NCBI RefSeq assembly: GCF_016592555.1
Contig: NZ_AP014546.1
Location: forward strand, 1-64,000
Length of the DNA: 64,000 nt
Source of the DNA: Neptunomonas japonica JAMM 1380
GTDB lineage: Bacteria > Pseudomonadota > Gammaproteobacteria > Pseudomonadales > Balneatricaceae
Direction of reading: 5' to 3'
Part shown: positions 13,254-63,778 of the stretch, one piece after another
Layout of the letters: each line of letters opens with the position of its first letter
Numbering within the stretch: position 1 is the stretch's first letter
Position numbers and translations under genes: made by a program
Notes under the pieces: model-generated
Databases searched by the model: none
The model's input: the letters and a program-made list of their open reading frames with translations, nothing else
What the model was told of the DNA's origin: nothing

Positions 13254-13391
13254 TTATAGTTGAGCTTCAGTTGATTCAGCTGGAGCGACTAAACCTGCCA
13301 GTGCAACTGTTATGCTATAAGCACTAACTAAGTTGTTATTACCCTTTCCCAAATGTGCTTGTACAGAAGAGCCCAAATCCGATAGTGGGCT
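13254..13391 (-). pseudogene. C-terminal remnant of the 95-aa secreted protein family (fourth copy)
   Basis: On the minus strand an open segment from 13391 to the TAA at 13254-13256 encodes 45 residues beginning SPLSDLGSSVQAHLG and ending STEAQL. This lines up along its whole length with the last 44 residues of the intact copy at 47405 (SPLSDLGVSVEAHL to STEAQL), with one extra residue in the middle. Upstream of the conserved SPL there is no signal peptide, no similarity to the family leader, and an in-frame stop a few codons before. I therefore read it as a 5'-truncated relic. A GTG shortly upstream could start a tiny protein, but it has no spaced ribosome site. Confidence 0.8.
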
Positions 13392-13539
13392 ATTGCACAC
13401 CTCTCTAACCGTAACCGAGCCTCATTACTAAAAGTGGTAAGCTCTCTTCTAAGTGACAGGCTTGCTCGGTGAATTCATAAAACCCTAAGATGGAGAGTTT
13501 CGCTTGTTAAGGTGTTTTTTCTACTGGTATTACTATGAG

Positions 13540-42096: not shown

Positions 42097-43210
42097 GGCT
42101 GTTGAACCCCAGTTGAATATTGAGTGTCTGCATAGCCGCTGTTAGTTTACCCTGAAGGGCTTTTAACTGGTCGCTGGTGTGCATCAATGTTTGATGTGTT
42201 TCTGGTGTGACGTTTAACTGAGCAATGGCAGATACGCTGTTGAGGTCTTCACTGATCCGATTAAATTCTGCATCAATTGCTTGGGCATTTAGCGTATCAC
42301 CCGCCGCTTCCAGTAGTGTTTTAACGCTGATTGGCTGTGTACCACTGTAGAGCTCATGTAAAGCAGCTAGATTCTGTTGGATATTATTAACGGACTGCTC
42401 GCTGCGCCATGATTCGCTTTTCTTCCAGCGGCTTTCTTCAGCAGAGGCGGCTAGTGGTTTTAGCAGCTTGTTGTCACGAATTGCTTCTACGGGTTCAACG
42501 AGCGACTTCATGAACTCTGTGGATGCTTCAGAAGGTGTTTCGTAAGCTTGGTAGGCAGCAGCATGGCTATCGCTGGGAAGTGCGTCTTGGCCTGCCAGTG
42601 AGATCTGTCGGGCTTCTTCTGCCCACTCGCTCTGGATCGACAGTGATGTTTCGTGAATATGCAGGGCGATTGCAGTAGCAAGGCTGCATTCAACGGCTTT
42701 GCTGTTTTGTATGCGCTTGTTTTTGGCAAACAGTAAGCGCTCTAGAGCAGGGAAACCTTTTAAGCTGATGCTAGCTGAGCGGAAAAACTCATCGTCAAAT
42801 GCTTGATCAGTTGTCTTTAGAATAGACTTGAGTTGCTTTGCGCCTGTGTTTTTTTTGTCCGGCCAGTATTGTAGTGAGTGATTACGCATCAGCATGGTGA
42901 CGGGGCCAAACTGTATATGCTGTACACCTTGCCAGCTTGCTTGAGCGGCATTAAAGCTTGTCTGGGCTGCGTTTAAGTTATCGCTGTTAGGGGTTGTACA
43001 CAAACGCTTTAACTGTTGTGACATCACATCACTGTTGTCAGCTAAGCGCTGGTAACGCGGTAAGACATGTTGCTCGATAATGGCATTGTTTAATGTGTGC
43101 CATTGCTTCTCAGAAGGGGCTTGTGACGATGCCGCGTGAACAGCCCCTGCTCCTAATATACATAAAGTGACGCCGAGTAACACAGGTGTCAGCGAACCGG
43201 TAGGTAACAT
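42083..43210 (-). CDS. Imelysin family protein (second, variant type)
   Basis: This 375-aa periplasmic protein is of the imelysin/M75-like fold, whose members bind iron or act in its uptake. It has a signal peptide (ending VHA, about residue 26) and an imelysin domain over most of the chain. SLKGFPALERLLFA is at about residue 153. In this protein the GxHxxE motif of canonical imelysins reads GFPALE, so the His is missing, as in the variant subgroup. Its start overlaps the stop of the DUF1111 gene. It forms an operon with the flanking iron-locus genes. Confidence 0.88.
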   Translation of the reverse strand: MLPTGSLTPVLLGVTLCILGAGAVHAASSQAPSEKQWHTLNNAIIEQHVLPRYQRLADNSDVMSQQLKRLCTTPNSDNLNAAQTSFNAAQASWQGVQHIQFGPVTMLMRNHSLQYWPDKKNTGAKQLKSILKTTDQAFDDEFFRSASISLKGFPALERLLFAKNKRIQNSKAVECSLATAIALHIHETSLSIQSEWAEEARQISLAGQDALPSDSHAAAYQAYETPSEASTEFMKSLVEPVEAIRDNKLLKPLAASAEESRWKKSESWRSEQSVNNIQQNLAALHELYSGTQPISVKTLLEAAGDTLNAQAIDAEFNRISEDLNSVSAIAQLNVTPETHQTLMHTSDQLKALQGKLTAAMQTLNIQLGFNSRDGD

Positions 43211-44694
43211 TAGAGAGACTCCAAAAAAGTGATCAGATTGTTTCTATCTTGTAGTGGTAATTGCATGAAACTAGCTTTACTCGCTTGTGCTTCCCCACCG
43301 TGCCAAAGAATGGCTTCGTATAAATTTCTCGCGCGCCCATCATGTAAAAATTGAGTATGCTGGCTAACGGCTTTTGTTAAGCCGACTCCCCATAGAGGCG
43401 GAGTGCGCCACTCACGGCCCGATGCCTGAAACTCTGGACGATGATCAGCCAGCGCTTCGCCCATATCATGCAGTAATAGATCTGTATAAGGCCAAATTAC
43501 TTGGTTAGCTTGAGCTGTGGGCGCATTGCTAGGTGTTTCATAACGAGGTGTATGACAGCTATGACAGCCGATTTGTGCAAAGGTAATTTGTCCACTAAGG
43601 ACTGCGGGCGTTTGGCTGTTTCTTCTTTTGGGAACAGCGAGGTTACGTGTGTAAAATTCAATTAAATCCACCATTTGAGCGGATGCTTCAGCATTATCCA
43701 AATGTACGCTATTCCCATTGGGAAATGATCGGCAGTCCGTTTGTTGTACGGTGCACTCCCCTGCCCCCAAAGGAAACATCGGTGATGAGATACCGATGTC
43801 AGAATGCAGGGCTGCATTATTTTGCTGTAGCAGCGTGGGGTTACCTGCTTTCCAACCAAAACGTCCTAGAGTGGTTTGTTGTTGCTGAATATTCCAGACG
43901 CGGTTGGCTCGCCCAGAAATACCATTCCCGTCTATGTCGTTGGGGTCTTCTTTGGCAAGAATATCTGCTTCGCTAATGGCTGCCAGTAAACCAAGGCCAA
44001 TCATCATAGGGGCGATGCGCGGTGACATCTGTATATTGTTTGGCAGTGGGCCGTAGTTAAGCTGCTCTATTGTATATATTGGAGCACGCAACGAGATTAC
44101 GCTTTGCTCTGTTGGGTTAGGAGCCTCTGTGGATAACTTAATCGGTATTTCTTTATAACGTATCGTCGCTTTTCCTTCACTAAGCAGCCCTTGCACCGAA
44201 AAATCTTGTAGCTGAGTACCATAGATTGGCTCGGGTATCACGCCAATGTGCCCTGCTGCTAGGTCTGCTTTATGTTGTTCTGTTTGTGCTGGGATACTAA
44301 GACGCATCATCATAGATGCTGCCATTAGGCTTGGTTTTTTGGGGCTCGTCGGCTGTCCACGGCCATTTCTAATATGGCAGCTTTGGCATGATCGAGCATT
44401 ATAAAGTGGTCCAAGACCGTCGCTGGCTGTTGTTGACGACGGTGAAGATACCCATATCTTCTCAAATAAACTTTTCCCCAGAATAAATACGAGCTGCTCT
44501 TCTTGAGTCAGGTTGGCTTGGGGTAGTGAAAAAATATGTTTACTAACTGCAGGTGTGGAGTTGCTGGTGTTTTGAGTTGAGGGTACAGGGGCCGCAGCGT
44601 ACGCTTTAGGAAACAAAGAAAGGCCAGACGCGATTGTTGCTGTAAAAGCAGCCATCGCGCCGAGAAGTGCCAAGATGAAAAATGATTTTTTCAT
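43210..44694 (-). CDS. Di-haem DUF1111 family protein (thiol oxidoreductase-like)
   Basis: This 494-aa periplasmic c-type cytochrome is of the DUF1111 family. It has a signal peptide (about residues 1-33), a haem motif CQSCH near residue 104, and a second CHSCH near residue 378 (IGCHSCHTPRY). The C-terminus has WRTPPLWGVGLTKAVSQHTQFLHDGRARNLYEAILWHGGEA, typical of MauG/CCP-related di-haem proteins. The family accompanies imelysins in iron-uptake loci; a redox role on iron is likely but not proven. It starts 9 bp after the first imelysin gene ends. Confidence 0.92.
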   Translation of the reverse strand: MKKSFFILALLGAMAAFTATIASGLSLFPKAYAAAPVPSTQNTSNSTPAVSKHIFSLPQANLTQEEQLVFILGKSLFEKIWVSSPSSTTASDGLGPLYNARSCQSCHIRNGRGQPTSPKKPSLMAASMMMRLSIPAQTEQHKADLAAGHIGVIPEPIYGTQLQDFSVQGLLSEGKATIRYKEIPIKLSTEAPNPTEQSVISLRAPIYTIEQLNYGPLPNNIQMSPRIAPMMIGLGLLAAISEADILAKEDPNDIDGNGISGRANRVWNIQQQQTTLGRFGWKAGNPTLLQQNNAALHSDIGISSPMFPLGAGECTVQQTDCRSFPNGNSVHLDNAEASAQMVDLIEFYTRNLAVPKRRNSQTPAVLSGQITFAQIGCHSCHTPRYETPSNAPTAQANQVIWPYTDLLLHDMGEALADHRPEFQASGREWRTPPLWGVGLTKAVSQHTQFLHDGRARNLYEAILWHGGEAQASKASFMQLPLQDRNNLITFLESL

Positions 44695-44703
44695 GTGCCC
44701 GTA

Positions 44704-45975
44704 TTAATTCGCTAGTACAGTACTTGGGTTATCTAGGCTATCAGAACCTTCTAGTTCAATATTTTCTAGCATTAATACACGCATCGCTTTTTCAATTGAG
44801 CGAGTTTGTGTTGTTAGAGCATCAACCGTTTTTTGTACGACAGCATTACCTGCTGGGTTACCACTGGCAATCAATACGTCAAAGGTATTACCCATGTTTG
44901 CTTGGTCAACCATCGCCTGCATAGCGGCTTCTGTAGCATTTAACTCTGCACGTAATTGCTGATCAACTTCAGATGACTGAGCACGTACCATCGAGGATAG
45001 GCTGGGCCCTTTAACAACGCTGCCATCAACGCGAGTGTATTCGCCTAGGTAAACGTTTTTAATCCCTTTGGCATCAAAATAGTGTGAGTTATGAGTGTTA
45101 TCTGAAAAGCAATCATGTTCTTCTTCAGGATCGTGCAGCATTAGACCTAGCTTGATACGTTCCCCTGCGAGTTCGCCATAAGAGAGGCTACCCATACCGT
45201 TCAGAATAGTAGCGAGCGCTTGGTTATCACTTTTAGCTGCCAACTCTTTACGTGCCGCACCACCGTCTTTCCAGTTATTCGTCATCTCTTCTAGATCGGT
45301 AATTAGCAGTGTTGTAACAGCGCTTAGATATTCACGACGGCGCTCACAGCTGCCGCCAGTGCAGTCTGTTAGGCTGTAGTCAGTGACGGGCCGGGTACCT
45401 GCCCCTTTTTCTGTGCCATTAAGATCTTGGCCCCATAATAAAAACTCAATAGCATGGTAGCCAGTCGCAACATTTGCCTCGACATCATCAACTTCATGTA
45501 ATGTCTCGGATAGCAATTGTGGAGTGATGTTACTTGCATCAATAGTGGTATTGCCGAGTTTCAGTATAGGGTTAGCAACGACGTTAGCGGTATATAGCAA
45601 GTTTTCGTCAGACTCTTCGCCATAACTACCGTTGTTAACGTAATCAATAAGCCCTTCATCCAAAGGCCATGCATTTACTTTGCCTTCCCACTCATCAACA
45701 ATCGCGTTGCCAAAACGAAACGCCTCTGTTTGTTGGTAAGGTACGCGAGCATCAATCCATGCCTGCTTGGCTGCATTTAGGCTTGCCTGAGTAGGCGATG
45801 CTAACAGGGCATCAATTGATGCTTTGAGCGTTTTAGCTGTGGAAAGAGAGTCGCCATAAGTTGCTTCGGCAATATCAGCATATGTGTCGATAACAGAGGT
45901 GGCGTTGTTGGCTAGCACTGCACAGCTAGTGGTTCCAAGTGCAACGGTGAGTGCTAGTTTTGTCAATGTTTTCAT
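44704..45975 (-). CDS. Imelysin family protein (canonical type)
   Basis: This 423-aa periplasmic imelysin (peptidase M75/ICMP/IrpA-like) is thought to bind iron at the cell surface or in the periplasm. It has a signal peptide (MKTLTKLALTVALGTTSCAVLA) and two imelysin repeats. The GxHxxE motif is GYHAIEFLLWGQDL, about residue 147. I use the ATG at 45975, directly before the signal peptide; an ATG at 46032 would add 19 residues and overlap the Fur box. It is the first gene of the leftward operon behind a strong Fur box. Confidence 0.93.
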   Translation of the reverse strand: MKTLTKLALTVALGTTSCAVLANNATSVIDTYADIAEATYGDSLSTAKTLKASIDALLASPTQASLNAAKQAWIDARVPYQQTEAFRFGNAIVDEWEGKVNAWPLDEGLIDYVNNGSYGEESDENLLYTANVVANPILKLGNTTIDASNITPQLLSETLHEVDDVEANVATGYHAIEFLLWGQDLNGTEKGAGTRPVTDYSLTDCTGGSCERRREYLSAVTTLLITDLEEMTNNWKDGGAARKELAAKSDNQALATILNGMGSLSYGELAGERIKLGLMLHDPEEEHDCFSDNTHNSHYFDAKGIKNVYLGEYTRVDGSVVKGPSLSSMVRAQSSEVDQQLRAELNATEAAMQAMVDQANMGNTFDVLIASGNPAGNAVVQKTVDALTTQTRSIEKAMRVLMLENIELEGSDSLDNPSTVLAN

Positions 45976-46014
45976 TAGAAAAGCCCTGAGATGAAATTCT
46001 TGGATGAAAATATA

Positions 46015-46033
46015 AATGATAAGCGTTATCATT
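46015..46033. promoter_or_regulatory. Fur box in the divergent iron-locus promoter
   Basis: AATGATAAGCGTTATCATT is a perfect inverted repeat around GCG. It closely matches the Fur consensus (GATAATGATAATCATTATC). It lies between the imelysin operon (start 45975) and the cytochrome-c peroxidase gene (start 46081), so one operator can control both. Confidence 0.88.
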
Positions 46034-46080
46034 ACAAATAGTGTTGTTGTTTTTTTATATGTATTTTCGGAGATGTTACC

Positions 46081-47220
46081 TTGAGAACGGCAAGCGTATT
46101 TTTGTTAGCTTCGGTTGCGCTATTAAATATTAGTGCTGTATATGCAGCTCAACCTCTTTCGCTGGAAAGTGCTCAAAAAGCAACACTAGGGCAGCAGTTG
46201 TTCTTTGATGTTAACTTGTCACAAAACCGAACACAGTCATGTGCGAGCTGTCATGCGCCTGATAAAGGCTTTTCGGACCATCGCGGTTTAAGTACTGCTT
46301 TAGCTGCATCGCTAGGTGATGATGGAAAATCGCTAGGCGATCGAAATGCGCCATCAGCCAGTTATGCGGCGTTTTCACCGCATTTTCAGAAAACATCAGA
46401 GGGTGTTTTTAAAGGAGGACAGTTCTGGGATGGGCGTGCTGACTCTTTAACGGAACAAGCCGGTGGGCCGCCGCTAAACCCTGGCGAAATGGGGCTAGCA
46501 AATAAAGCCAGTGCGGTTGACCGAATACAAGAAAACAGCCAGTACCAAGTGACGTTTAAAGACATTTATGGTGACGCTATTTTTGAGGATGCAGATAAGG
46601 CCTATGCTGCCATGAGCGATGCTATTGCAGCCTTTGAAGAAAGTGAATTTTTCTCCCCGTTTGATGCCAAATATGATCGTTATTTACGCGGTGAGTACCA
46701 ATTAACACCGCAAGAGGATTTAGGGCGTACTCTTTTTTTCTCCCAGCAGTTTACCAACTGTAATCTTTGCCACCAGTTACGTACCTTGCCAGAACAACAA
46801 AAGGAAACATTTAGTAATTATGAGTTCCATAACATCGGTGTGCCTGCTAACACAGCTTTGCGAGCAATCAATGGTGCTACACAGGTTGATCAGGGTTTGC
46901 TTAACCATCCTGATGTAGAGGATTTAGCCCAGCGTGGCAAATTTAAAACACCAACATTGCGTAACGTTGCGGTGACTGGCCCCTATATGCATAACGGCGT
47001 TTTTACCGACTTACGCACCGTTGTTCTGTTTTATAACAAATACAACAGCCGTAGTGTTAAACGACAGATCAACCCTGAAACGGGCGAGCAATGGCGTGAG
47101 CCAGAAATTGCGCAAACCCTCTCTCGTAAAGAACTAGAAACAGGCCCTGCTTTGGATGATAAGCGTATTGATGCGTTGGTGGCTTTTTTAAAAACATTGA
47201 CTGATAAGAAGTATGAATAA
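46081..47220 (+). CDS. Cytochrome-c peroxidase / MauG family di-haem protein
   Basis: This 379-aa periplasmic di-haem enzyme is of the bacterial cytochrome-c peroxidase family. It has a signal peptide ending YAA (about residue 22) and haem motifs CASCH (about 58) and CNLCH (about 224). TLGQQLFFDVNLSQNRTQSCASCHAPDKGFSD and FKTPTLRNVAVTGPYMHNGVF are hallmark stretches. It starts with TTG at 46081, preceded by CGGAG at good spacing. Divergence from the imelysin operon and the shared Fur box indicate iron-linked expression, which is odd for a plain H2O2 scavenger and suggests a role in iron-uptake redox chemistry. Confidence 0.92.
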   Translation: MRTASVFLLASVALLNISAVYAAQPLSLESAQKATLGQQLFFDVNLSQNRTQSCASCHAPDKGFSDHRGLSTALAASLGDDGKSLGDRNAPSASYAAFSPHFQKTSEGVFKGGQFWDGRADSLTEQAGGPPLNPGEMGLANKASAVDRIQENSQYQVTFKDIYGDAIFEDADKAYAAMSDAIAAFEESEFFSPFDAKYDRYLRGEYQLTPQEDLGRTLFFSQQFTNCNLCHQLRTLPEQQKETFSNYEFHNIGVPANTALRAINGATQVDQGLLNHPDVEDLAQRGKFKTPTLRNVAVTGPYMHNGVFTDLRTVVLFYNKYNSRSVKRQINPETGEQWREPEIAQTLSRKELETGPALDDKRIDALVAFLKTLTDKKYE

Positions 47221-47285: not shown

Positions 47286-47404
47286 TTACATATAACAAAA
47301 GATTTTTAAAATAAGTTTTCTTATTTCAGTTTCGTTTCAGCTACGGATTTTAAAGTAGCACCATCACAGTGCAACACGCTGAACCACTTTAAGGAAACGA
47401 CATT
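47286..47404 (+). promoter_or_regulatory. Conserved leader of secreted-protein copy A, with possible SD-sequestering RNA fold
   Basis: This block is nearly identical to those before copies B and C. It holds two TTTCAG elements 11 bp apart (47324-47329, 47335-47340). TTAAAGT (47350-47356) is complementary to ACTTTAA (47386-47392). Inside that pair CAGTG (47367-47371) and CGCTG (47377-47381) pair with one G-U. The outer helix can extend by two G-U pairs over the GG of the ribosome site AAGGAA (47391-47396). If transcription starts upstream, it is a translational control element. If TTTTAAAGT is a -10, it is promoter. Confidence 0.6.
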
Positions 47405-47692
47405 ATGAAAACGTTACTAACGACAGCTATTCTTTCTTCTGCTCTGTTCGCTTCACAGGCATTTGCCGGTGGTTTAAGCCATTTTGATACTCAGTCTGTT
47501 GAAGCTAACCTAGCTGCGGGCCATGTATCTACAGCGCAGGGGTTTGCCTCTGTTAGCAGCCCATTGTCTGATCTAGGCGTATCTGTAGAGGCTCACTTGG
47601 CCGGTAACAGCAACCTAGTTAGCACTTATAGCAACACCGTTGCACTGGTAGGTTTAGTTGTACCGGCTGGATCAACAGAAGCACAGCTTTAA
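47405..47692 (+). CDS. Small secreted protein, unrecognised three-copy family (copy A)
   Basis: This 95-aa protein has a 21-residue signal peptide (MKTLLTTAILSSALFASQAFA). The 74-residue mature chain starts GGLSHFDTQSVEANLAAGHV and ends VPAGSTEAQL. The mature part has no Lys, Arg, Cys or Trp, is acidic and rich in Ser, Ala and Val. The family core is SPLSDLGVSVEAHL. I recognise no domain. It is exported and probably periplasmic or extracellular. Copies B (51032) and C (52892) are the same length with the same leader, and a truncated relic lies at 13254. It stands alone with its own conserved leader and an AAGGAAACGA ribosome site. Confidence 0.85.
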   Translation: MKTLLTTAILSSALFASQAFAGGLSHFDTQSVEANLAAGHVSTAQGFASVSSPLSDLGVSVEAHLAGNSNLVSTYSNTVALVGLVVPAGSTEAQL

Positions 47693-47702
47693 TTTTTTAT
47701 TA

Positions 47703-47721
47703 GAGAGTTATGTGCTCTCTC
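47703..47721. terminator. Weak hairpin after copy A
   Basis: AGAGAG and CTCTCT flank TTATGTG about 10 bp after the stop codon of copy A. The position suits a terminator, but no T-run follows. Confidence 0.35.
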
Positions 47722-47833
47722 AATTAACACAGGCCTTTTGCCGCTAATTATTCAAATTAATGTAGAACAATTCAGCGGCATTTTTGTAGGGCGCACATGC
47801 TCAGATCATTGTTTGAGTGAGCCTAAAACCCTG

Positions 47834-48874
47834 CTATAGCTGACCCTTGGCTAGCTGCTTTGTAAGCTCTGCTGCTGGTATCTCTTTACACCCTGTCGAG
47901 TTTTGCCCGCACCACAAGGGTGAAAAGTCACCGCTGCCATTGGCTTCGGCTTTTGAGCGCAGCGCCGTAATGGCTGTTGTCGCCAATGGAAATTCAGGTG
48001 TGCAGTTACTGATAGGGCCCATTTCCTTAATAACGCGGTTAACGATACTACGCGCCGGCCTACCTGAGAAAAGGTTAGTAAGAGCGGTGTGTTGTGCCGA
48101 GGGGCTTTTCAGTGCTGCGCGGTGAACCCCGCTTGTTTTTGTTTCTGGACAAAGTAAATAAGCAGTACCCACTTGTACTGCGGCTGCACCAAGAGACAAA
48201 GCTGCTGAAATACCTTTAGCGTCGGCAATACCGCCAGCGGCAATAACAGGAATATTCACGGCCTGGGCAATTTGAGGTAGTAACGAAAAAGTACCTATTT
48301 GTGTGGTGATATCATCAGATAAAAAGATTCCTCGATGCCCACCGGCTTCGAGCCCTTGCGCAATGATGGCATCGGCACCATTTGCTTCAAGCCATAGGGC
48401 CTCTTCAACCGTTGTTGCTGATGAGATTACCTTGGCGCCCCAGCTCTTAACGCGTGTGATTAAATCGGGTGAAGGCAAACCAAAATGAAAGCTAACTACA
48501 GGTGGTTGAAACTCTTCAATTATATCGGCAATTTCATGGGAAAACGGCGCGCGGCCAAGCGCAACAGGGATCTCGTCAGCATTGATTTTATACTCACGAA
48601 AGTAAGGTTGTAGTGCGTTGCGCCAAATACCTTCACGTTCTGTGTTTACCGAGGGGGGGGTATGACAAAAGAAATTTACATTAAAAGGTTTACGGGTTTT
48701 TGTAGTAATGGTGGTTAGTTCGCTACGAATCATGTCAGGTGTAAGCATGGCGCAAGGTAGTGAGCCTAATCCTCCGGCTTGAGATACCGCAATGGCCAGT
48801 TCGCTCCCTTGCACTCCAGCCATAGGTGCTTGAATAATAGGTAACTCAATGCCTAACAAATCCTTGATATTCAT
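47834..48874 (-). CDS. Nitronate monooxygenase (2-nitropropane dioxygenase-like)
   Basis: This 346-aa FMN-dependent TIM-barrel enzyme oxidises alkyl nitronates such as propionate 3-nitronate. Family stretches are PIIQAPMAGVQGSELAIAVSQAGGLGSLPC at the N-terminus, AQGLEAGGHRGIFLSDD (about residue 175) and IPVIAAGGIADAKGISAALSLGAAAVQVGTAYLLCPE (about 210-245), which binds FMN phosphate. It is the last of a possible leftward unit with the CHMI-type and HAD genes (spacings 47 and 16 bp). No nitro-compound pathway is visible. Confidence 0.93.
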   Translation of the reverse strand: MNIKDLLGIELPIIQAPMAGVQGSELAIAVSQAGGLGSLPCAMLTPDMIRSELTTITTKTRKPFNVNFFCHTPPSVNTEREGIWRNALQPYFREYKINADEIPVALGRAPFSHEIADIIEEFQPPVVSFHFGLPSPDLITRVKSWGAKVISSATTVEEALWLEANGADAIIAQGLEAGGHRGIFLSDDITTQIGTFSLLPQIAQAVNIPVIAAGGIADAKGISAALSLGAAAVQVGTAYLLCPETKTSGVHRAALKSPSAQHTALTNLFSGRPARSIVNRVIKEMGPISNCTPEFPLATTAITALRSKAEANGSGDFSPLWCGQNSTGCKEIPAAELTKQLAKGQL

Positions 48875-48921
48875 ATTGCTTATTCGCCTTTAGCTATTAT
48901 GTTTCCTGATGATTAACGCAT

Positions 48922-49263
48922 TTACTGTACAGCTTTTGCGTAGGAATACTTTTCCATATTACAGACTTCCACTGTTAATGAGACATCTGATAATTCTATT
49001 ACTTGAAGCCCTTTTAAGACCGCTTCAGATAGATCACTGCGTTGCTCAATGGTTCGGCCGGATAAAATCTTCAAAGTTACGTGAACAAATTCTTGTTGCT
49101 TCGAGCCCGTTTGATAGTGCTTATAGCAGAGCGCTCGGGTCTTAATGTCTGGCTCTGTAAACAATCCAGAAGAGAGTGCTCCTTGAAAAACGGCATTAAT
49201 CAAATCAGCTGGGGCTGTTGATGCTTCTAAACCTTCAGAATATTCAATAATACAGTGTGGCAT
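48922..49263 (-). CDS. 5-carboxymethyl-2-hydroxymuconate delta-isomerase family protein
   Basis: This 113-aa tautomerase-superfamily protein is of the CHMI (HpaF) type. It begins MPHCIIEYSEGLE, where Pro after the initiator Met is the catalytic base in the family. RALCYKHYQTGSKQQEFVHVTLKILSGRTIEQR matches the conserved region. True HpaF acts in homoprotocatechuate breakdown, but no other hpa gene is here. It is probably an orphan tautomerase of unknown substrate. It lies between the nitronate monooxygenase and HAD genes, all leftward. Confidence 0.88.
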   Translation of the reverse strand: MPHCIIEYSEGLEASTAPADLINAVFQGALSSGLFTEPDIKTRALCYKHYQTGSKQQEFVHVTLKILSGRTIEQRSDLSEAVLKGLQVIELSDVSLTVEVCNMEKYSYAKAVQ

Positions 49264-49279
49264 GAGGGGGCCTTAATAA

Positions 49280-49753
49280 TTATGTTGCTGTGCATAACTC
49301 ACTCAAACAGCGGATAGTTCTTACCTCTTGCGAGGGCGGCTGATTGTTATCTGGAGCAAACCAGACGGGTGTAATCCCTAAGCTAAGCGCTGGTTTTATA
49401 TCCTTTGCATAGCTGTCGCCCACCATGATGACCTGTGAAGCGGGAATATCTAATTGCTGTAAAATTACTCTGAAAAAGTCAGGAGACTCTTTGGTTACAC
49501 CCAAATTTTCTTTACAAAAGACACCAGTAATATACTGGTTTAACCCGACACGTTGAAAGGCTCTTTTGATATCTTGTTCAGATGAGTCAACCGCACCTGT
49601 CGCTAGATATATTGGCGCATCTTTAGAGAGCTGGGCCAATACTTCTTCTGCACCCGTAACCGCTTCTACATTGGCCCAGTCGCACATTTTTCCGTCAATA
49701 TCAGGGAAATCTACCATCAAGGTATCTCCCCAGTCGAACAGGTAAGTAGTCAC
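49280..49753 (-). CDS. HAD family hydrolase, small, with DWG motif I
   Basis: This 157-aa HAD-fold hydrolase has motif I FDWGDTLM (residues 6-11) and motif II in YLATGAVDSS. Motif III is a Lys in GVTKESPDFF and motif IV is VGDSYAKDI. In motif I the second Asp (nucleophile +2) is replaced by Gly, a pattern seen in phosphonatase-like members and some uncharacterised HADs. Catalysis may therefore differ from the standard DxD type. The substrate is unknown. It is first in the leftward HAD-CHMI-nitronate monooxygenase run and downstream of the Sel1 gene (33 bp). Confidence 0.88.
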   Translation of the reverse strand: MTTYLFDWGDTLMVDFPDIDGKMCDWANVEAVTGAEEVLAQLSKDAPIYLATGAVDSSEQDIKRAFQRVGLNQYITGVFCKENLGVTKESPDFFRVILQQLDIPASQVIMVGDSYAKDIKPALSLGITPVWFAPDNNQPPSQEVRTIRCLSELCTAT

Positions 49754-49786
49754 TAATGCCGCCTCCCGTTATTTTATGTAAATCCT

Positions 49787-50683
49787 TTACCAACCCGCTT
49801 GTTGCTTAACTGTTAAAGCAGGCCTAAAGTTTTGTGCTGCAGACTTTAAGGTTAGCTCTTTTGCTTTGCTCATATCTTTAGTAACCGCTTCACCCCGTAA
49901 ATACATTTGGCCAAGCCAGAACTGTGCCGCCGCATGATTCTTTTTTGCTAAGGCCTGATAAATTTTCGCTGCTTTGCTTTTGTTTGGTTTAATGCCATAA
50001 CCATTTGAAAGCATGTAAGCATATTCAAACTGAGCCGTTGTATTGCTTTTATCTGCAGCAACTTTAAAGTTGCCTAAAGCCCTCTTAAACCAGTAATGGG
50101 ATTTTTTCTGGTTTTTTTCAATACCCTCACGGCCGTCTCTGTACCAGTAAGCAAGTTGCTTTTGAGCCATGGGGTTCTTGTCTTGTGCTGATTTAAGCAT
50201 CCATTTTTCAGCTAAAAATACATCTTTAGCGACGCCCTCACCCCGCAACAACTGAATGGCATAGTCAAATTTTGCATGTTTATGCCCTACTTCAGCGGCC
50301 AGTCTAAATAACTCAGCGGCCTGTTTTATATCTTTCGCTACACCAGCGCCAGCAGCATAGTTGTGCCCGAGTGTATGCAAAGCATCAGGGTGTTTTTTAT
50401 TAGCGGCTATAACTAGATATTCTTTCGCCTTACGGTGATCTACAGAAGTGCCAATTCCATTCGTATACAAAAGATAGAGTAAATATGATGAATGTATATG
50501 GCCTTTATCTGAGGCGATAACAAGGTGTTCAACAGCTTTTTGGGGGTGACGGTTTGCACGATCAAGGTAGCTAATACCTTTTTTATATAAAGAATCTGCA
50601 GATAATGAGGGGGCTATTTCTTTAGAGTTTACATGTAAGGGAATTAAACATAGAACGATAATAACAAAACGTAAGAGCTGCAT
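49787..50683 (-). CDS. Sel1-like repeat (SLR) exported protein
   Basis: This 298-aa protein has a signal peptide (MQLLRFVIIVLCLIPLHVNS). About six to seven Sel1-like tetratricopeptide-type repeats follow, for example HPDALHTLGHNYAAGAGVAKDIKQAAELFRLAAEVGH, AKFDYAIQLLRGEGVAKDVFLAEKWMLKSAQDKN and AAQFWLGQMYLRGEAVTKDMSKAKELTLKSA. SLR proteins are scaffolds for protein interaction. The ATG at 50683 has AAGGGG eight bases upstream and directly opens the signal peptide. An ATG at 50710 would add nine residues. Its partner is unknown. Confidence 0.92.
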   Translation of the reverse strand: MQLLRFVIIVLCLIPLHVNSKEIAPSLSADSLYKKGISYLDRANRHPQKAVEHLVIASDKGHIHSSYLLYLLYTNGIGTSVDHRKAKEYLVIAANKKHPDALHTLGHNYAAGAGVAKDIKQAAELFRLAAEVGHKHAKFDYAIQLLRGEGVAKDVFLAEKWMLKSAQDKNPMAQKQLAYWYRDGREGIEKNQKKSHYWFKRALGNFKVAADKSNTTAQFEYAYMLSNGYGIKPNKSKAAKIYQALAKKNHAAAQFWLGQMYLRGEAVTKDMSKAKELTLKSAAQNFRPALTVKQQAGW

Positions 50684-51031
50684 AATATAACCCCTTTTGT
50701 TTTTAATCACTAAGCTAGAAACACAACGTGAGTGCTACTAAAAGCATATGTTCATACAAGTTATATAAAGACTATAAAAGCAGAAAATTATATTATCAAT
50801 AAAAGCATTGAAGAACAGGGGTATAAAGAGCCTGAAAAATAATATTATTAAAACTATGCCTACGGTTTAATGTTATTAATTAAAGTACGGTTTTATTCGT
50901 GTTTTTTTGATTAGAAGCAATAATATAAAATATTTTATAATTGTTTTCTTATTTCACTTTGGTTTCAGCTAGTGGTTTTAAAGTAGCACCATCAACAGCG
51001 AAACACGCTGCACAACTTTAAGGAAACGACT
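50684..51031. other. AT-rich divergent intergenic region (Sel1 gene / copy B)
   Basis: This stretch of about 350 bp has no gene. The left part (50700-50940) is A+T rich without a recognised element. The last 90 bp (50942-51031) are the conserved leader of copy B. Confidence 0.6.
50942..51031 (+). promoter_or_regulatory. Conserved leader of secreted-protein copy B
   Basis: It has the same layout as before copy A. TTTCAC and TTTCAG are 11 bp apart (50952-50957, 50963-50968). TTAAAGT (50978-50984) is complementary to ACTTTAA (51015-51021), next to the ribosome-site GG. CAGCG (50996-51000) pairs with CGCTG (51006-51010) around AAACA. Confidence 0.6.
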
Positions 51032-51319
51032 ATGAAAACTTTACTGACAACAGCTCTTCTTGCTTCTGCCCTTTTCACTTCACAGGCGTTTGCTGGTGGC
51101 CTAAGTGACTTTTCTGCACAGTCTGTTGAATCAAACTTAGCAGCAGTCAATCTGACTTCAGCACAAGGTTTTGTATCAGTTGATAGCCCGCTGTCTGACT
51201 TAGGTGCATCAGTGGAAGCGCAATTAAGTAACGATAGTCACCGTACTGTTAGTACTACAAGTTACAATTTTGTAGCGGGTTTGGATGTACCAGCTCAGTC
51301 ACAAGAAGCTTTATTATAA
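51032..51319 (+). CDS. Small secreted protein, unrecognised three-copy family (copy B)
   Basis: This 95-aa protein has signal peptide MKTLLTTALLASALFTSQAFA and a 74-residue mature chain starting GGLSDFSAQSVESNLAAVNL and ending LDVPAQSQEALL. It has one Arg and no Lys, Cys or Trp. The core SPLSDLGASVEAQL matches copies A and C. No known domain is recognised. The ribosome site AAGGAAACGAC and the leader are family-specific. It is convergent with a DUF1127 gene, with a strong hairpin (51377-51395) between them. Confidence 0.85.
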   Translation: MKTLLTTALLASALFTSQAFAGGLSDFSAQSVESNLAAVNLTSAQGFVSVDSPLSDLGASVEAQLSNDSHRTVSTTSYNFVAGLDVPAQSQEALL

Positions 51320-51376
51320 GCGCCGAGTATTTAACGTAATTTTTTTAATACATTGCTTAACGGTAGTTGTTAAAAG

Positions 51377-51395
51377 ATGGGAGGCTACCTCCCAT
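51377..51395. terminator. Hairpin between copy B and DUF1127 gene
   Basis: ATGGGAGG and CCTCCCAT form an 8-bp stem around CTA between two convergent genes. The T-content after it is modest (TATTTCTAT on the plus strand). Confidence 0.6.
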
Positions 51396-51441
51396 GCTAT
51401 TTCTATCGTCCAGCGTAATCTCCTTGTTCTACTTACCCTTA

Positions 51442-51678
51442 TCAGTCCTTCCAAAAGGATTTATCCGCTTCTTGCTGTGCCTCCCCCGTGCTAATACCGA
51501 TATCTTTTAATTGATAAGCACTGAGTTGGGATAACTGTCGGCGAGTTCTCCAGTTCATACGCCAATGTTGTAGGCGCTCCTTCCAGTGTTGTAGCGTCTG
51601 TTGTAACTGCGTTGTGAATTTAGCATTTTGGGTATCTCTAAATATAGTTTTTCTTAAGCATATATCGTTAGTGTTCAT
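51442..51678 (-). CDS. DUF1127 domain-containing protein
   Basis: This 78-aa basic protein has the C-terminal DUF1127 motif WRTRRQLSQLSAYQLKDIGISTGEAQQEADKSFW. This arginine-rich family includes small proteins that affect RNA turnover, phosphate or carbon metabolism and envelope traits in several proteobacteria. The N-terminal about 35 residues are variable. It is divergent from a GcvA-type LysR gene (51835), a pairing commonly seen for DUF1127 genes, so regulation by that LysR protein is likely by context only. Confidence 0.92.
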   Translation of the reverse strand: MNTNDICLRKTIFRDTQNAKFTTQLQQTLQHWKERLQHWRMNWRTRRQLSQLSAYQLKDIGISTGEAQQEADKSFWKD

Positions 51679-51834
51679 TGTCCTTCCTCATCAGTGTTCG
51701 GTTTTATCTACGTTATTAAAAAATAAAACGCCGTTTTTGCGGCTTATGAGGTTATTTTTATCGAACGGATGGCAGACGACAAACGAGTAATTCGTCAGTA
51801 TGATTAAGAAAATCTAATCTATATGTGGGCATCT

Positions 51835-52773
51835 ATGAACAGACTACCTTCATTAAAAGCGCTTCAGGCCTTCTATTACGCTGCGCAAGATCAGAGCTTT
51901 AAACAGGCTGCTGAGCGTTTGCATGTAACACAAGCTGCTATTAGCCAGCAGATTAAAACCTTGGAACAGCAGCTTGGAGTATCGTTGTTCAAGCGTATGA
52001 CGCGTGAGGTGGTATTAACACCGGAGGGCATGCAGCTTTTGCCTTTTGTTAATAAGGCGTTTTCTTTGTTTGAGCAAGGAGTAGCTGAGCTAGGGCAGGA
52101 TGCGCAGCCAAATAGATTAACGCTGAGTGTTCTACCGTCATTTGCTGGGCGCTGGTTAGTACCAAGGTTAGGTATATTTCAACAGCACTACCCTGAACTT
52201 ATTATTCATTTGACGCCTAGCTTAAAGTTAGGTTCATTTGAGGCAAACGATTTGGACCTAGCGGTACGTTTTGGTAGAGGAAAATATCCCGGATTGAGTG
52301 CTCGATTACTGCAAAAAGAGTATTTACTACCGGTGTGCCATCCGTCGCTGCTTGATCATATGCAGCCGATTGCCGAGCAATTAGTAAAGCTACCGCTATT
52401 AGCTGATGATGCCCCTGATATGAAAGAGGTCTGGCCTCAGTTTGAGCAGGCGTTGGGTATGCCTTTACCGCAAAACACAACACGCTTGTATGTATCCGAC
52501 TCTACCATGCTTGTAGAGGCATTATTAAGCGGCCAAGGTTTTGCGATGTTACGCTTTAGTTTGGCGTATGAACTATTACAACGTGGACAACTCATCTGCC
52601 CTTTGCCTATTTATATTAAGTCTATTTACGACTACTACTTAGTAGCGCCTGAGTCTTATTTTAAACGCCCTAAGGTTGTTCAATTTGAAGGATGGATACG
52701 GCAAGAGATTAAGGAAATAGATCACAGTTGGCAGCAGTTTACTAAGCTATCATCTGACGGTGACCATGCTTAA
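51835..52773 (+). CDS. LysR family transcriptional regulator, GcvA-like
   Basis: This 312-aa regulator begins MNRLPSLKALQAFYYAAQDQSFKQAAERLHVTQAAISQQIKTLEQQLGVSLFKR, the typical GcvA-subgroup opening. A LysR substrate domain with SVLPSFAGRWLVPRLGIF and DLAVRFGRGKYPGLSARLL follows. I chose the ATG at 51835 on family grounds; an ATG at 51823 would add MWAS. It is divergent from the DUF1127 gene and followed after 118 bp by copy C of the small secreted family, so either may be a target. Confidence 0.9.
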   Translation: MNRLPSLKALQAFYYAAQDQSFKQAAERLHVTQAAISQQIKTLEQQLGVSLFKRMTREVVLTPEGMQLLPFVNKAFSLFEQGVAELGQDAQPNRLTLSVLPSFAGRWLVPRLGIFQQHYPELIIHLTPSLKLGSFEANDLDLAVRFGRGKYPGLSARLLQKEYLLPVCHPSLLDHMQPIAEQLVKLPLLADDAPDMKEVWPQFEQALGMPLPQNTTRLYVSDSTMLVEALLSGQGFAMLRFSLAYELLQRGQLICPLPIYIKSIYDYYLVAPESYFKRPKVVQFEGWIRQEIKEIDHSWQQFTKLSSDGDHA

Positions 52774-52775
52774 TT

Positions 52776-52891
52776 ACATATAACTAAAACAATATTAAAA
52801 AATGTTTTCTTATTTCAGTTTGGTTTCAGCTACAGGTTTTAAAGTAGCACCATCACAGCGAATCACGCTGAACAACTTTAAGGAAACGACC
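52776..52891 (+). promoter_or_regulatory. Conserved leader of secreted-protein copy C
   Basis: It has the same elements as copies A and B. TTTCAG repeats lie at 52813-52818 and 52824-52829 (11 bp apart). TTAAAGT (52839-52845) is complementary to ACTTTAA (52875-52881), and CAGCG (52856-52860) pairs with CGCTG (52866-52870) around AATCA. Similarity to copy A continues upstream to ATTACATATAAC. Confidence 0.6.
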
Positions 52892-53179
52892 ATGAAAACA
52901 ATACTAACGACGGCTCTACTTTCTTCAGCTCTTTTCGCTTCACAGGCATTTGCCGGTGGTTTAAGTGATTTTTCTGCTCAGTCTATTGAAGCTAACTTAG
53001 CGGCAGGCCATGTTGTAACTGCGCAAGGCTTTGAGTCTGCTAGCAGCCCGCTGACTAACTTAGGCGCATCTACACAAGCGCATTTAGGTGATGGCAGTCA
53101 CAGCAACGTAAATCAGGCACATAGTAACGCTGTAGTGAGCTTTGGTTTAGACGTTCCAGCACACTCTAGCGAAGTTTAG
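52892..53179 (+). CDS. Small secreted protein, unrecognised three-copy family (copy C)
   Basis: This 95-aa protein has signal peptide MKTILTTALLSSALFASQAFA and a 74-residue mature chain starting GGLSDFSAQSIEANLAAGHV and ending LDVPAHSSEV. It has no Lys, Arg, Cys or Trp. It has several His in the middle (AHLGDGSH, NQAHSN). The core SPLTNLGASTQAHL matches the others. The frame is open further upstream to 52802, but the family leader and ribosome site AAGGAAACGAC fix the start at 52892. It lies just after a GcvA-type LysR gene. Confidence 0.85.
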   Translation: MKTILTTALLSSALFASQAFAGGLSDFSAQSIEANLAAGHVVTAQGFESASSPLTNLGASTQAHLGDGSHSNVNQAHSNAVVSFGLDVPAHSSEV

Positions 53180-63520: not shown

Positions 63521-63607
63521 GCAGATGTGGTGGAATTGGTAGACACGCTAGCTTCAGGTGCTAGTGCCTTCACGGGCGTGGGAGTTCGAGTCTCCCCATC
63601 TGCACCA
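63521..63607 (+). tRNA. tRNA-Leu (CAG), copy 1
   Basis: This 87-nt gene has encoded CCA. The acceptor arm is GCAGATG / CATCTGC with discriminator A. The anticodon stem CTAGC / GCTAG has loop TTCAGGT, giving anticodon CAG. It has a long variable arm of class II (CTTCACGGGCGTG region) and T-loop GTTCGAGTC. Confidence 0.95.
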
Positions 63608-63691: not shown

Positions 63692-63778
63692 GCAGATGTG
63701 GTGGAATTGGTAGACACGCTAGCTTCAGGTGCTAGTGCCTTCACGGGCGTGGGAGTTCGAGTCTCCCCATCTGCACCA
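63692..63778 (+). tRNA. tRNA-Leu (CAG), copy 2
   Basis: Base-for-base it looks identical to copy 1 over all 87 nt, with anticodon CAG and encoded CCA, 171 bp further on. The spacer between copies differs from the flanks, so the repeat is limited to the tRNA gene. Probably co-transcribed with copy 1. Confidence 0.95.

What the first reader, a model, noticed from the sequence alone, without database searches (positions are those of the whole stretch)
47405..53179. Three-copy family of unrecognised 95-aa secreted proteins
Copies at 47405, 51032 and 52892 each encode exactly 95 residues: a nearly identical 21-aa signal peptide and a 74-aa mature chain starting GGLS. The mature chains lack Lys, Cys and Trp (one Arg in copy B only), are acidic, and are Ser/Ala/Val rich around a shared SPL(S/T)(D/N)LG core. 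The copies are separated by unrelated genes, not tandem. I know no named family that fits. The lack of Lys and Arg in an exported protein could mean resistance to trypsin-like proteases or a structural or self-assembling role; that is speculation.
Basis: partly seen in the sequence, partly recalled or inferred. Interest (0 to 1): 0.82.

Follow-up and report, generated by a model that had tools for sequence, protein, structure and literature searches.

The report
Secreted mini-proteins under one stress switch
A marine bacterium carries eight near-copies of an unnamed small exported protein, and every copy sits behind the same rare DNA switch, which appears to belong to a sensor system that also controls copper-binding peptides.

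Summary
In detail: three 95-aa exported proteins at 47405, 51032 and 52892, with no match above cut-off in Pfam, NCBIfam, PHROGs or PADLOC. It is larger than described: the 4.1-Mb genome has eight full copies plus a remnant (13257-13403). Six of eight Neptunomonas genomes searched have the family; database hits with a genus name are all Neptunomonas.

The key is the promoter. All eight copies carry TTTCA[G/C]-N5-TTTCAG, 10 nt, TAAAGT, the layout of an OmpR/PhoB-type response-regulator box. Similar boxes precede four other transcription units: an operon PepSY-response regulator-PhoQ-like kinase headed by a 106-aa secreted protein, a bufferin (copper-chelating RiPP) operon, and two YHS units, one with cytochrome P460. 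Across 116 genomes of the bacterial family the box tracks that kinase (32 of 33 box genomes). Elsewhere it also precedes BufA2, HvfA-type, DsbC and MsrAB genes and other tiny secreted proteins.

Mature chains carry about three S-x-E-x-x-L motifs 29-30 residues apart and look disordered. Best reading: main output of an undescribed envelope-stress (probably copper/oxidative) two-component system. The regulation is well supported by inference; the biochemical function is not. Lys/Arg avoidance is partial (31 of 55 relatives lack both).

The parts
47405..47692 (+). copy A, 95-aa secreted protein (signal peptide 47405-47467, mature 47468-47689)
47324..47356 (+). promoter box of copy A: TTTCAG-N5-TTTCAG-N10-TAAAGT
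47495..47512 (+). copy A first S-x-E-x-x-L motif (SVEANL)
47582..47599 (+). copy A second motif (SVEAHL)
47672..47689 (+). copy A third motif at the C-terminus (STEAQL)
51032..51319 (+). copy B, 95-aa secreted protein (mature 51095-51316), motifs SVESNL, SVEAQL, SQEALL
50952..50984 (+). promoter box of copy B (first half TTTCAC)
51377..51395 (+). terminator-like hairpin downstream of copy B (consensus scan; number of such sites in the region not above shuffles)
52892..53179 (+). copy C, 95-aa secreted protein (mature 52955-53176), two motifs SIEANL and STQAHL; its C-terminus ends SSEV, short of a third
52813..52845 (+). promoter box of copy C
13257..13403 (-). 5'-truncated remnant of a further copy (second half of the mature chain to the stop), no signal peptide; no box on the - strand of the window

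Best explanation
The three genes are part of an eight-gene, apparently genus-restricted family of small exported proteins that form the main output of one two-component system. SHOWN by sequence: every copy in this genome has the same 11-bp direct-repeat box 10 nt upstream of a -10-like TAAAGT; a box of the same kind precedes the PepSY-response regulator-kinase operon in all seven Neptunomonas genomes that have this operon. INFERRED: the response regulator of that operon (OmpR/PhoB fold) binds the box and activates its own operon, the family and a small set of envelope genes (bufferin operon, YHS proteins, cytochrome P460; in other genera BufA2, HvfA-type, DsbC, MsrAB). INFERRED, less sure: the signal is excess copper or related oxidative stress in the periplasm. 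INFERRED, weakest step: the mature chains act as abundant, acidic, largely disordered periplasmic or extracellular buffer or shield proteins, made from a triplicated ~30-residue unit (S-x-E-x-x-L core) of the same type as the secreted protein that heads the sensor operon; many gene copies supply dose. They look like outputs rather than ligands of the sensor, because in the g2 and g6 loci read the sensor operon is kept without such a secreted protein gene.
For: Box: 8 exact sites = 8 copies, 2 two-mismatch sites elsewhere, control 0; looser pattern 11 sites, control 0. Union 12 sites: 8 family genes + TCS operon, DUF2282-MNIO operon, P460-YHS, YHS. Genus: 54 sites in 8 genomes; by position and by eye 36 family genes plus one at a contig end, 7 TCS operons, 5 bufferin, 4 YHS, 1 unassigned. 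G074 lacks box, family, PepSY gene and kinase ortholog. Of 30 PepSY loci, 28 showed my PepSY signature and all 28 have the box (21) or a one-base variant (7) upstream. Family: 33 of 116 genomes have the box; kinase orthologs at E 2.3e-149 or lower in 39, next best 2.6e-71; 32 of 33 box genomes have the kinase. Order: 4 of 390 genomes, two of them own genus. Regulon: BufB 314.5 bits (cut-off 310); DUF2282; BufA2 122.8 (60) and HvfA-type domain 66.8 (19.5); DsbC_N, PMSR/SelR, YHS. Bufferins chelate copper: PMC12452194, passages. Motif: 3.09 per chain vs 0.22 in shuffles, 32 chains; period 29/30. dN/dS 0.09-0.32 whole gene, 0.09-0.36 mature, 4 pairs. Disorder.
Against: No expression, binding or export data. 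The seven g6 genomes have the kinase but no exact box; a variant ATTCAG-N5-TTTCA[G/C] stands before PepSY in the five g6 loci read, so the genome-level match is imperfect, and related genomes are not independent. Of 57 box sites read, several have no clear gene or a housekeeping gene downstream. Against copper buffering: no Cys, almost no Met, 1-6 His per chain, no invariant His; CopM is described as rich in Met and His (PMC4335983 passages). Sensor MxxH: the Met is specific to this kinase group (30 of 30), but the His is also in 10 of 10 paralogs. The internal period is clear for the averaged family, but single chains mostly do not stand out (2 to 286 of 2000 shuffles reach the score). Kinship with the 106-aa protein is weak by profile (E 0.028); my motif pattern admitted Met after I had seen that protein; without Met it gives two motifs (27 of 10000 shuffles) in G000 and one (831 of 10000) in G070, and G073 has one even with Met (2674 of 20000). 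The low-confidence fold may reflect a shallow alignment. The HvfA full-length model (59.4 vs 95) and NCBIfam DsbC (169.5 vs 215) stay below their cut-offs.
Confidence: 0.55

Rival explanations
1. Feedback or signalling proteins: the S-x-E-x-x-L repeats bind the PepSY protein or the kinase sensor and tune or shut off the system, as CpxP-like auxiliary proteins do (recalled).
For: A secreted protein with the same triplicated motif heads the sensor operon in 4 of 7 Neptunomonas operons clearly and in a diverged form in a fifth; the copies share the sensor operon's box; in G071 the family exists without the 106-aa gene and could replace it.
Against: In the 15 g2 loci read there is either too little room for such a gene between box and PepSY (11 loci, 205-362 nt to the PepSY signature) or a second PepSY-like gene (4 loci), and the five g6 loci read have the box directly before PepSY. 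The head protein of G076 has quite different repeats (PLxAPKD, six copies) although its kinase is 92% identical, so no conserved interface is seen.
Confidence: 0.2
2. Metal-binding buffer: the mature chains chelate Cu(II) or Zn(II) through His, Asp and Glu in the periplasm or outside, a Cys-free counterpart of bufferins or of CopM.
For: Same box as bufferin, BufA2 and HvfA-type genes; net charge -2 to -9 and 1-6 His per chain; copMRS of Synechocystis has a comparable gene layout.
Against: No invariant His, no Cys, nearly no Met.
Confidence: 0.25
3. Weapon, decoy or interaction protein against outside agents (cationic peptides, competitors, phage), explaining lineage-specific sequence turnover.
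For: Different tiny secreted proteins behind the same box in different genera; 4-10 matches per genome.
Against: dN/dS 0.09-0.36 in four pairs with G072 shows constraint, not rapid change, within the genus; no toxin, immunity or defence match above a cut-off.
Confidence: 0.15
4. Functional amyloid or other self-assembling fibre (three imperfect repeats, Ser/Ala/Val/Gly/Asn rich, few charges).
For: Triplicated ~30-residue unit; composition.
Against: Model shows weak helices and no strands, at low confidence; no Pfam match at all for copies A and C and only DUF6488 at E 0.16 for copy B; no assembly genes noticed by eye near the copies.
Confidence: 0.08
5. The box belongs to another regulator (for example PhoB or a CreB-like regulator; the CreB tag TTCAC-N6-TTCAC is recalled), and the PepSY operon is only one of its targets.
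For: The half-sites resemble several OmpR-family boxes (recalled).
Against: The box or a one-base variant precedes PepSY in 28 of 28 loci with the PepSY signature; it tracks that kinase in 32 of 33 box genomes, and 76 genomes of the same family have neither.
Confidence: 0.1

Closest known systems
Bufferins (BufA1/DUF2282, BufA2) and HvfA-type MNIO-modified RiPPs
   Same: Small exported proteins, same promoter box in these genomes, one of them in this genome
   Different: Bufferins need Cys motifs and an MNIO maturase; the 95-aa family has no Cys and no such neighbour was seen
CopM with CopRS (Synechocystis)
   Same: A small exported protein encoded in an operon with its two-component system and induced with it (PMC4335983, passages)
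   Different: CopM has DUF305 domains and is rich in Met and His; this family has no DUF305 match, no Met and few His, and lies away from the sensor operon in many copies
PhoPQ / PmrAB / QseBC type two-component systems
   Same: OmpR-type regulator and PhoQ-like kinase core, direct-repeat box, box before its own operon
   Different: All scores are far below the curated cut-offs (e.g. PhoQ 162.8 vs 497); a PepSY gene and often a secreted repeat protein head the operon
CpxP and other small exported stress proteins (recalled)
   Same: Small exported product of an envelope-stress regulon
   Different: CpxP is a folded helical protein (recalled); this one looks disordered and acidic, without a match in the family libraries

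Membership tests
Bufferin / MNIO-modified RiPP | Cys-containing core motif | tested here: not met
   0 Cys in 55 of 55 mature chains
Bufferin / MNIO-modified RiPP | MNIO maturase gene adjacent | tested here: not met
   none seen by eye in the ORF lists beside the eight copies; an MNIO gene is at 2.32 Mb with its own DUF2282 gene
CopM / DUF305 or other Met/His-rich copper buffer | DUF305 match and Met/His-rich chain | tested here: not met
   no Pfam match above cut-off, no DUF305 at E up to 10; Met absent in 54 of 55
DUF4142 (label on two UniRef entries) | Pfam DUF4142 match | tested here: not met
   no DUF4142 hit among the three copies at E up to 10; label seen
Functional amyloid (curli/Fap type) | curlin-type repeat, beta-rich assembly | tested here: inconclusive
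   no curlin hit; low-confidence model without strands; assembly not testable here
OmpR/PhoB-type regulon | direct repeat with 11-bp period about 10 nt upstream of a -10 element | tested here: met
   8 of 8 copies in this genome
OmpR/PhoB-type regulon | binding and activation by the regulator | not testable with these tools
   only co-occurrence of box and kinase was tested
PepSY-RR-HK two-component system | PepSY, response regulator + Trans_reg_C, HATPase_c kinase in one operon | tested here: met
   in this genome; PepSY loci of other genera
Exported protein (Sec signal peptide) | Lys after Met, hydrophobic core, A-x-A type cleavage site | tested here: met
   read from sequence; no signal-peptide predictor was run, export not measured
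Secreted repeat protein of the sensor operon (106 aa) | three S-x-E-x-x-[LM] motifs about 30 residues apart | tested here: inconclusive
   motif shared in 4 of 5 orthologs, but profile alignment E 0.028 and weaker counts with the strict motif

The most novel reading that the evidence does not exclude
One conserved envelope sensor system, marked by its own highly specific DNA box, drives in each genus a different, locally expanded family of tiny secreted repeat or acidic proteins alongside copper-chelating RiPPs. These proteins would be a new class of Cys-free exported stress proteins whose sequence is almost freely replaceable between lineages.
Probability: 0.35. Interest if true: 0.75.

Novelty: new variant of a known kind. 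Interest (0 to 1): 0.6.

Why it matters
It turns an orphan family of hypothetical proteins into a testable regulon: a specific box, an identified operon and a short list of co-regulated genes. It links copper-chelating RiPPs (whose clusters often hold sigma factors and NrsF, PMC12452194 passages) to a two-component system, and shows that one switch can stand before unrelated tiny exported proteins in different genera, which bears on what such orphan families are for.

Tried and rejected
Toxin/antitoxin, phage or defence origin: no PHROGs match better than E 0.02 (signal-peptide region) and no PADLOC match. Shared mobile cassette: beyond promoter and leader the flanks of the eight copies differ by eye. 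A relative in another genus (G026, E 8.8e-5) matches over residues 1-48 and the ORF there is unrelated. A general E-x-H-[LM] motif linking the tiny proteins of the regulon: a position matrix from the family scored at p 0.001 (L148), 0.0056 (L141a), 0.011 and 0.016 (two 106-aa orthologs), but the other 17 of the 21 sequences tested were above 0.05, so I do not claim it. Profile comparison of four tiny-protein groups: no pair convincing. Copper sensing from the MxxH of the kinase sensor: only half of the motif is specific. Mistakes redone: the first kinase alignment caught 7 of 30 loci because of a narrow pattern (redone); the first paralog extraction failed (redone); one search read minus-strand loci in the wrong direction (redone for all 30 loci, two without my PepSY signature). 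Papers: search listings; none of the listed titles or abstracts describes a two-component system for bufferins or this box. The library is open-access only, and one search matched mostly 'buffering' (170 papers, 10 listed), so this is weak evidence of absence. I saw passages of three papers: PMC12452194, PMC4335983 and PMC11278893, whose TTTCAG is part of an IHF site and unrelated. The CreB tag, CpxP and the general OmpR/PhoB promoter rule are recalled.
Full report
WHAT IS THERE. A search of the closed 4,095,481-bp genome in which the window lies finds eight full copies and one remnant. The remnant lies in the window at 13257-13403 (-) and keeps only the second half of the mature chain. All eight copies lie on the + strand; three of them sit within 3.2 kb at 3.114-3.118 Mb. 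The neighbours seen differ from site to site, so there is no common operon.

DISTRIBUTION. For the three copies, Pfam, NCBIfam, PHROGs and PADLOC give nothing above a cut-off, and copy B has no PDB sequence match at E up to 10. A single-sequence search finds 26 proteins and a 24-row profile search 55, the weakest at 3e-24. Every entry with a genus name is Neptunomonas; one is called only Pseudomonadales; most have no name. In 116 genomes of the family, 7 match at E up to 0.001: six of eight Neptunomonas genomes with 4-10 matches each (fragments and the remnant included), and one other genus (G026), which matches over residues 1-48 only and whose ORF there is unrelated. In four pairs of similar copies between this genome and G072, dN/dS is about 0.09, 0.24, 0.32 and 0.18 over the whole gene and 0.09, 0.29, 0.36 and 0.24 over the mature part, so the genes are under purifying selection. 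G072 is N. japonica DSM 18939, because three boxes on its contig have the same positions and contig length as on NZ_AUGR01000002.1.

THE PROMOTER. Aligning 160 bp upstream of the eight copies shows one strongly conserved block, TTTCAG-N5-TTTCAG followed after 10 nt by TAAAGT. A pattern from this block matches eight places in the genome exactly, all eight the family, and two more with two mismatches; the reversed control pattern matches none. A looser pattern gives 11 sites, control none. The four sites that are not family genes precede: (a) at 443935, an operon of a 106-aa secreted protein, a PepSY protein, an OmpR-type response regulator and a kinase; (b) at 2070272, a cytochrome P460 gene and a YHS gene; (c) at 2074691, another YHS gene; (d) at 2321998, a DUF2282 gene, a DUF692 gene whose protein passes the NCBIfam cut-off for the bufferin maturase, a gene I take by eye for DUF2063, and a DoxX gene. 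Repeats with an 11-bp period next to a -10 element are the usual target of OmpR/PhoB-type regulators (recalled).

WHICH REGULATOR. In all seven Neptunomonas genomes with the PepSY gene a box lies upstream of it, with at most one gene between. The eighth, G074, has no box, no family, no PepSY gene and no kinase ortholog. G076 has operon and boxes but no family. I re-read all 30 PepSY loci in the right direction: 28 show my PepSY signature, and 28 of 28 have the box (21) or a variant differing in one base of a half-site (7) upstream. Among 116 genomes of the family, kinase orthologs at E 2.3e-149 or lower occur in 39 (7 of 8 in g1, 17 of 17 in g2, 7 of 7 in g6, 3 of 4 in g7, 5 of 5 in g15); the next best are at 2.6e-71. 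The exact box occurs in 33 genomes, g1 7, g2 17, g7 4, g15 5. Thirty-two of the 33 have the kinase; the exception, G036, is 71% complete and its PepSY gene lies 31 bases from a contig end. The seven g6 genomes have the kinase without an exact box; in the five g6 loci read a variant ATTCAG-N5-TTTCAG (TTTCAC in one) stands before PepSY. A Fisher test on 32/7/1/76 gives 1e-20, which overstates the case because the genomes are related. Over 390 genomes spread over the order, 4 match: two are Neptunomonas and two have a single hit each. I infer that this regulator acts at the box; nothing here shows binding.

WHAT ELSE THE BOX CONTROLS. By position and by eye, the 54 sites in eight Neptunomonas genomes fall into 36 family genes plus one at a contig end, 7 sensor operons, 5 bufferin operons, 4 YHS genes and 1 unassigned site. 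One search lists 143 sites in all, 89 of them outside the genus. I fetched 50 regions holding 57 sites, 48 of them outside the genus; I chose them to cover genera and clusters, not at random. Downstream genes include BufA1 (DUF2282-like, by eye outside this genome), BufA2 (122.8 bits, cut-off 60), HvfA-type precursors (repeat domain 66.8, cut-off 19.5; full-length model 59.4, below 95), a DsbC-like protein (DsbC_N 54 bits, cut-off 25; NCBIfam DsbC 169.5, below 215), MsrAB, YHS, a radical SAM protein and several groups of tiny secreted proteins, some in clusters with a box for nearly each gene. Some boxes have no clear gene or a housekeeping gene downstream (L136, L137, L146, L164, L171, L180 and one of three in L142). 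Bufferins are described as periplasmic copper chelators (PMC12452194, passages). The common theme, periplasmic copper and oxidative damage, is inference.

THE PROTEINS. The mature chains hold S-x-[EQ]-x-x-L motifs at about residues 10, 39 and 69: 3.09 per chain on average over 32 distinct chains against 0.22 in shuffles; 5 of the 32 have two, copy C among them. Offset scoring of 12 chains peaks at 29 and 30 residues (22.4 against a null maximum of 14.7), although single chains mostly do not stand out (2 to 286 of 2000 shuffles). The 106-aa protein of the sensor operon shows the same plan at 31-33 residues in four orthologs (21.8 against 19.5). Profile alignment alone is weak (E 0.028). In G076 the same slot holds a different secreted protein with six PLxAPKD repeats spaced 29-35, and in G035 a 314-aa protein with six repeats spaced 41-43. 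In four of five g15 genomes the slot holds short secreted proteins (L141, L144, L148, L153; the fifth was not read). In 11 of 15 g2 loci read there is too little room for such a gene, and in four a second PepSY-like gene fills the slot. So the slot often holds a secreted repeat protein, but its sequence changes and it can be absent. AlphaFold2 on 27 sequences gives pLDDT 51 and pTM 0.19, with helices over the motifs and no strands: probably disordered, but a shallow alignment could give the same.

HOW IT LIKELY WORKS. Stress in the envelope activates the kinase; the regulator binds the direct repeat and induces its own operon, a copper-chelating RiPP, YHS and P460 proteins and eight copies of the small protein, which accumulates outside the cytoplasm. 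Because the sensor operon is kept in genera without such a gene in it, and the proteins change faster than the sensor, I read them as output. An acidic, Cys-, Trp- and Met-free chain would not be damaged easily by oxidants (inference) and could bind cations or shield other proteins. Specific copper binding is doubtful, because no His is invariant.

VERDICT. Real, a new family, and best explained as a two-component-system output. The regulatory part I hold at about 0.9, copper or oxidative stress as the signal at about 0.5, and any particular biochemical function at no more than 0.3.

Noticed in passing
window 43210-47220: Di-haem oxidoreductase (DHOR), imelysin (Peptidase_M75) and a MauG-type di-haem peroxidase lie together directly upstream of copy A; they look like an iron-related set (recalled). 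The only exact boxes in the window are those of copies A, B and C.
   Followed up: partly
window 47357-47404, 50985-51031, 52846-52891: The leaders of copies A-C share a short inverted repeat (CAGCG-N5-CGCTG or CAGTG-N5-CGCTG) just before the ribosome binding site; it is absent from the three copies at 3.11 Mb.
   Followed up: no
L057 277-921: In Neptunomonas G076 the gene between box and PepSY encodes a 215-residue secreted protein with six PLxAPKD repeats and a C-terminal Cys, quite unlike the 106-aa protein of its relatives.
   Followed up: partly
L139 498-1439 (-): In genome G035 the gene behind the sensor-operon box is a 314-aa secreted protein with six repeats of 41-43 residues (AHSDREL...DHWGKSVYDYQ) and no NCBIfam match at E up to 0.01.
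   Followed up: partly
L133, L134, L135, L142: Clusters of 67-74-aa secreted proteins (SVEQSQLGAG...SHYDSVEKVTIDG...LYIGSK and relatives), nearly all with an exact box each, in genera g7 and g15: a second lineage-specific family in the same regulon.
   Followed up: partly
L158, L161, L166, L179: HvfA-type EGKCGG RiPP precursors behind the same box in genus g2, and BufA2-type precursors in g15 (L140, L147, L151); only L158 and L147 were scanned, the rest are by eye. It suggests the system controls whichever copper RiPP a genus has.
   Followed up: partly
L037 and L042: A family copy in G070 is split over two matches, apparently a broken gene that still has a box with a 9-nt spacer.
   Followed up: no
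L154, L159, L182: A radical SAM gene stands behind a box of the form TTTCAGGTTGCTTTCAG...TACGAT in several g2 genomes; NCBIfam places the one scanned (L154) below all cut-offs listed, nearest Rv1681-type.
   Followed up: no
window 63521-63607 and 63692-63778: Two tRNA-Leu(CAG) genes in tandem.
   Followed up: no
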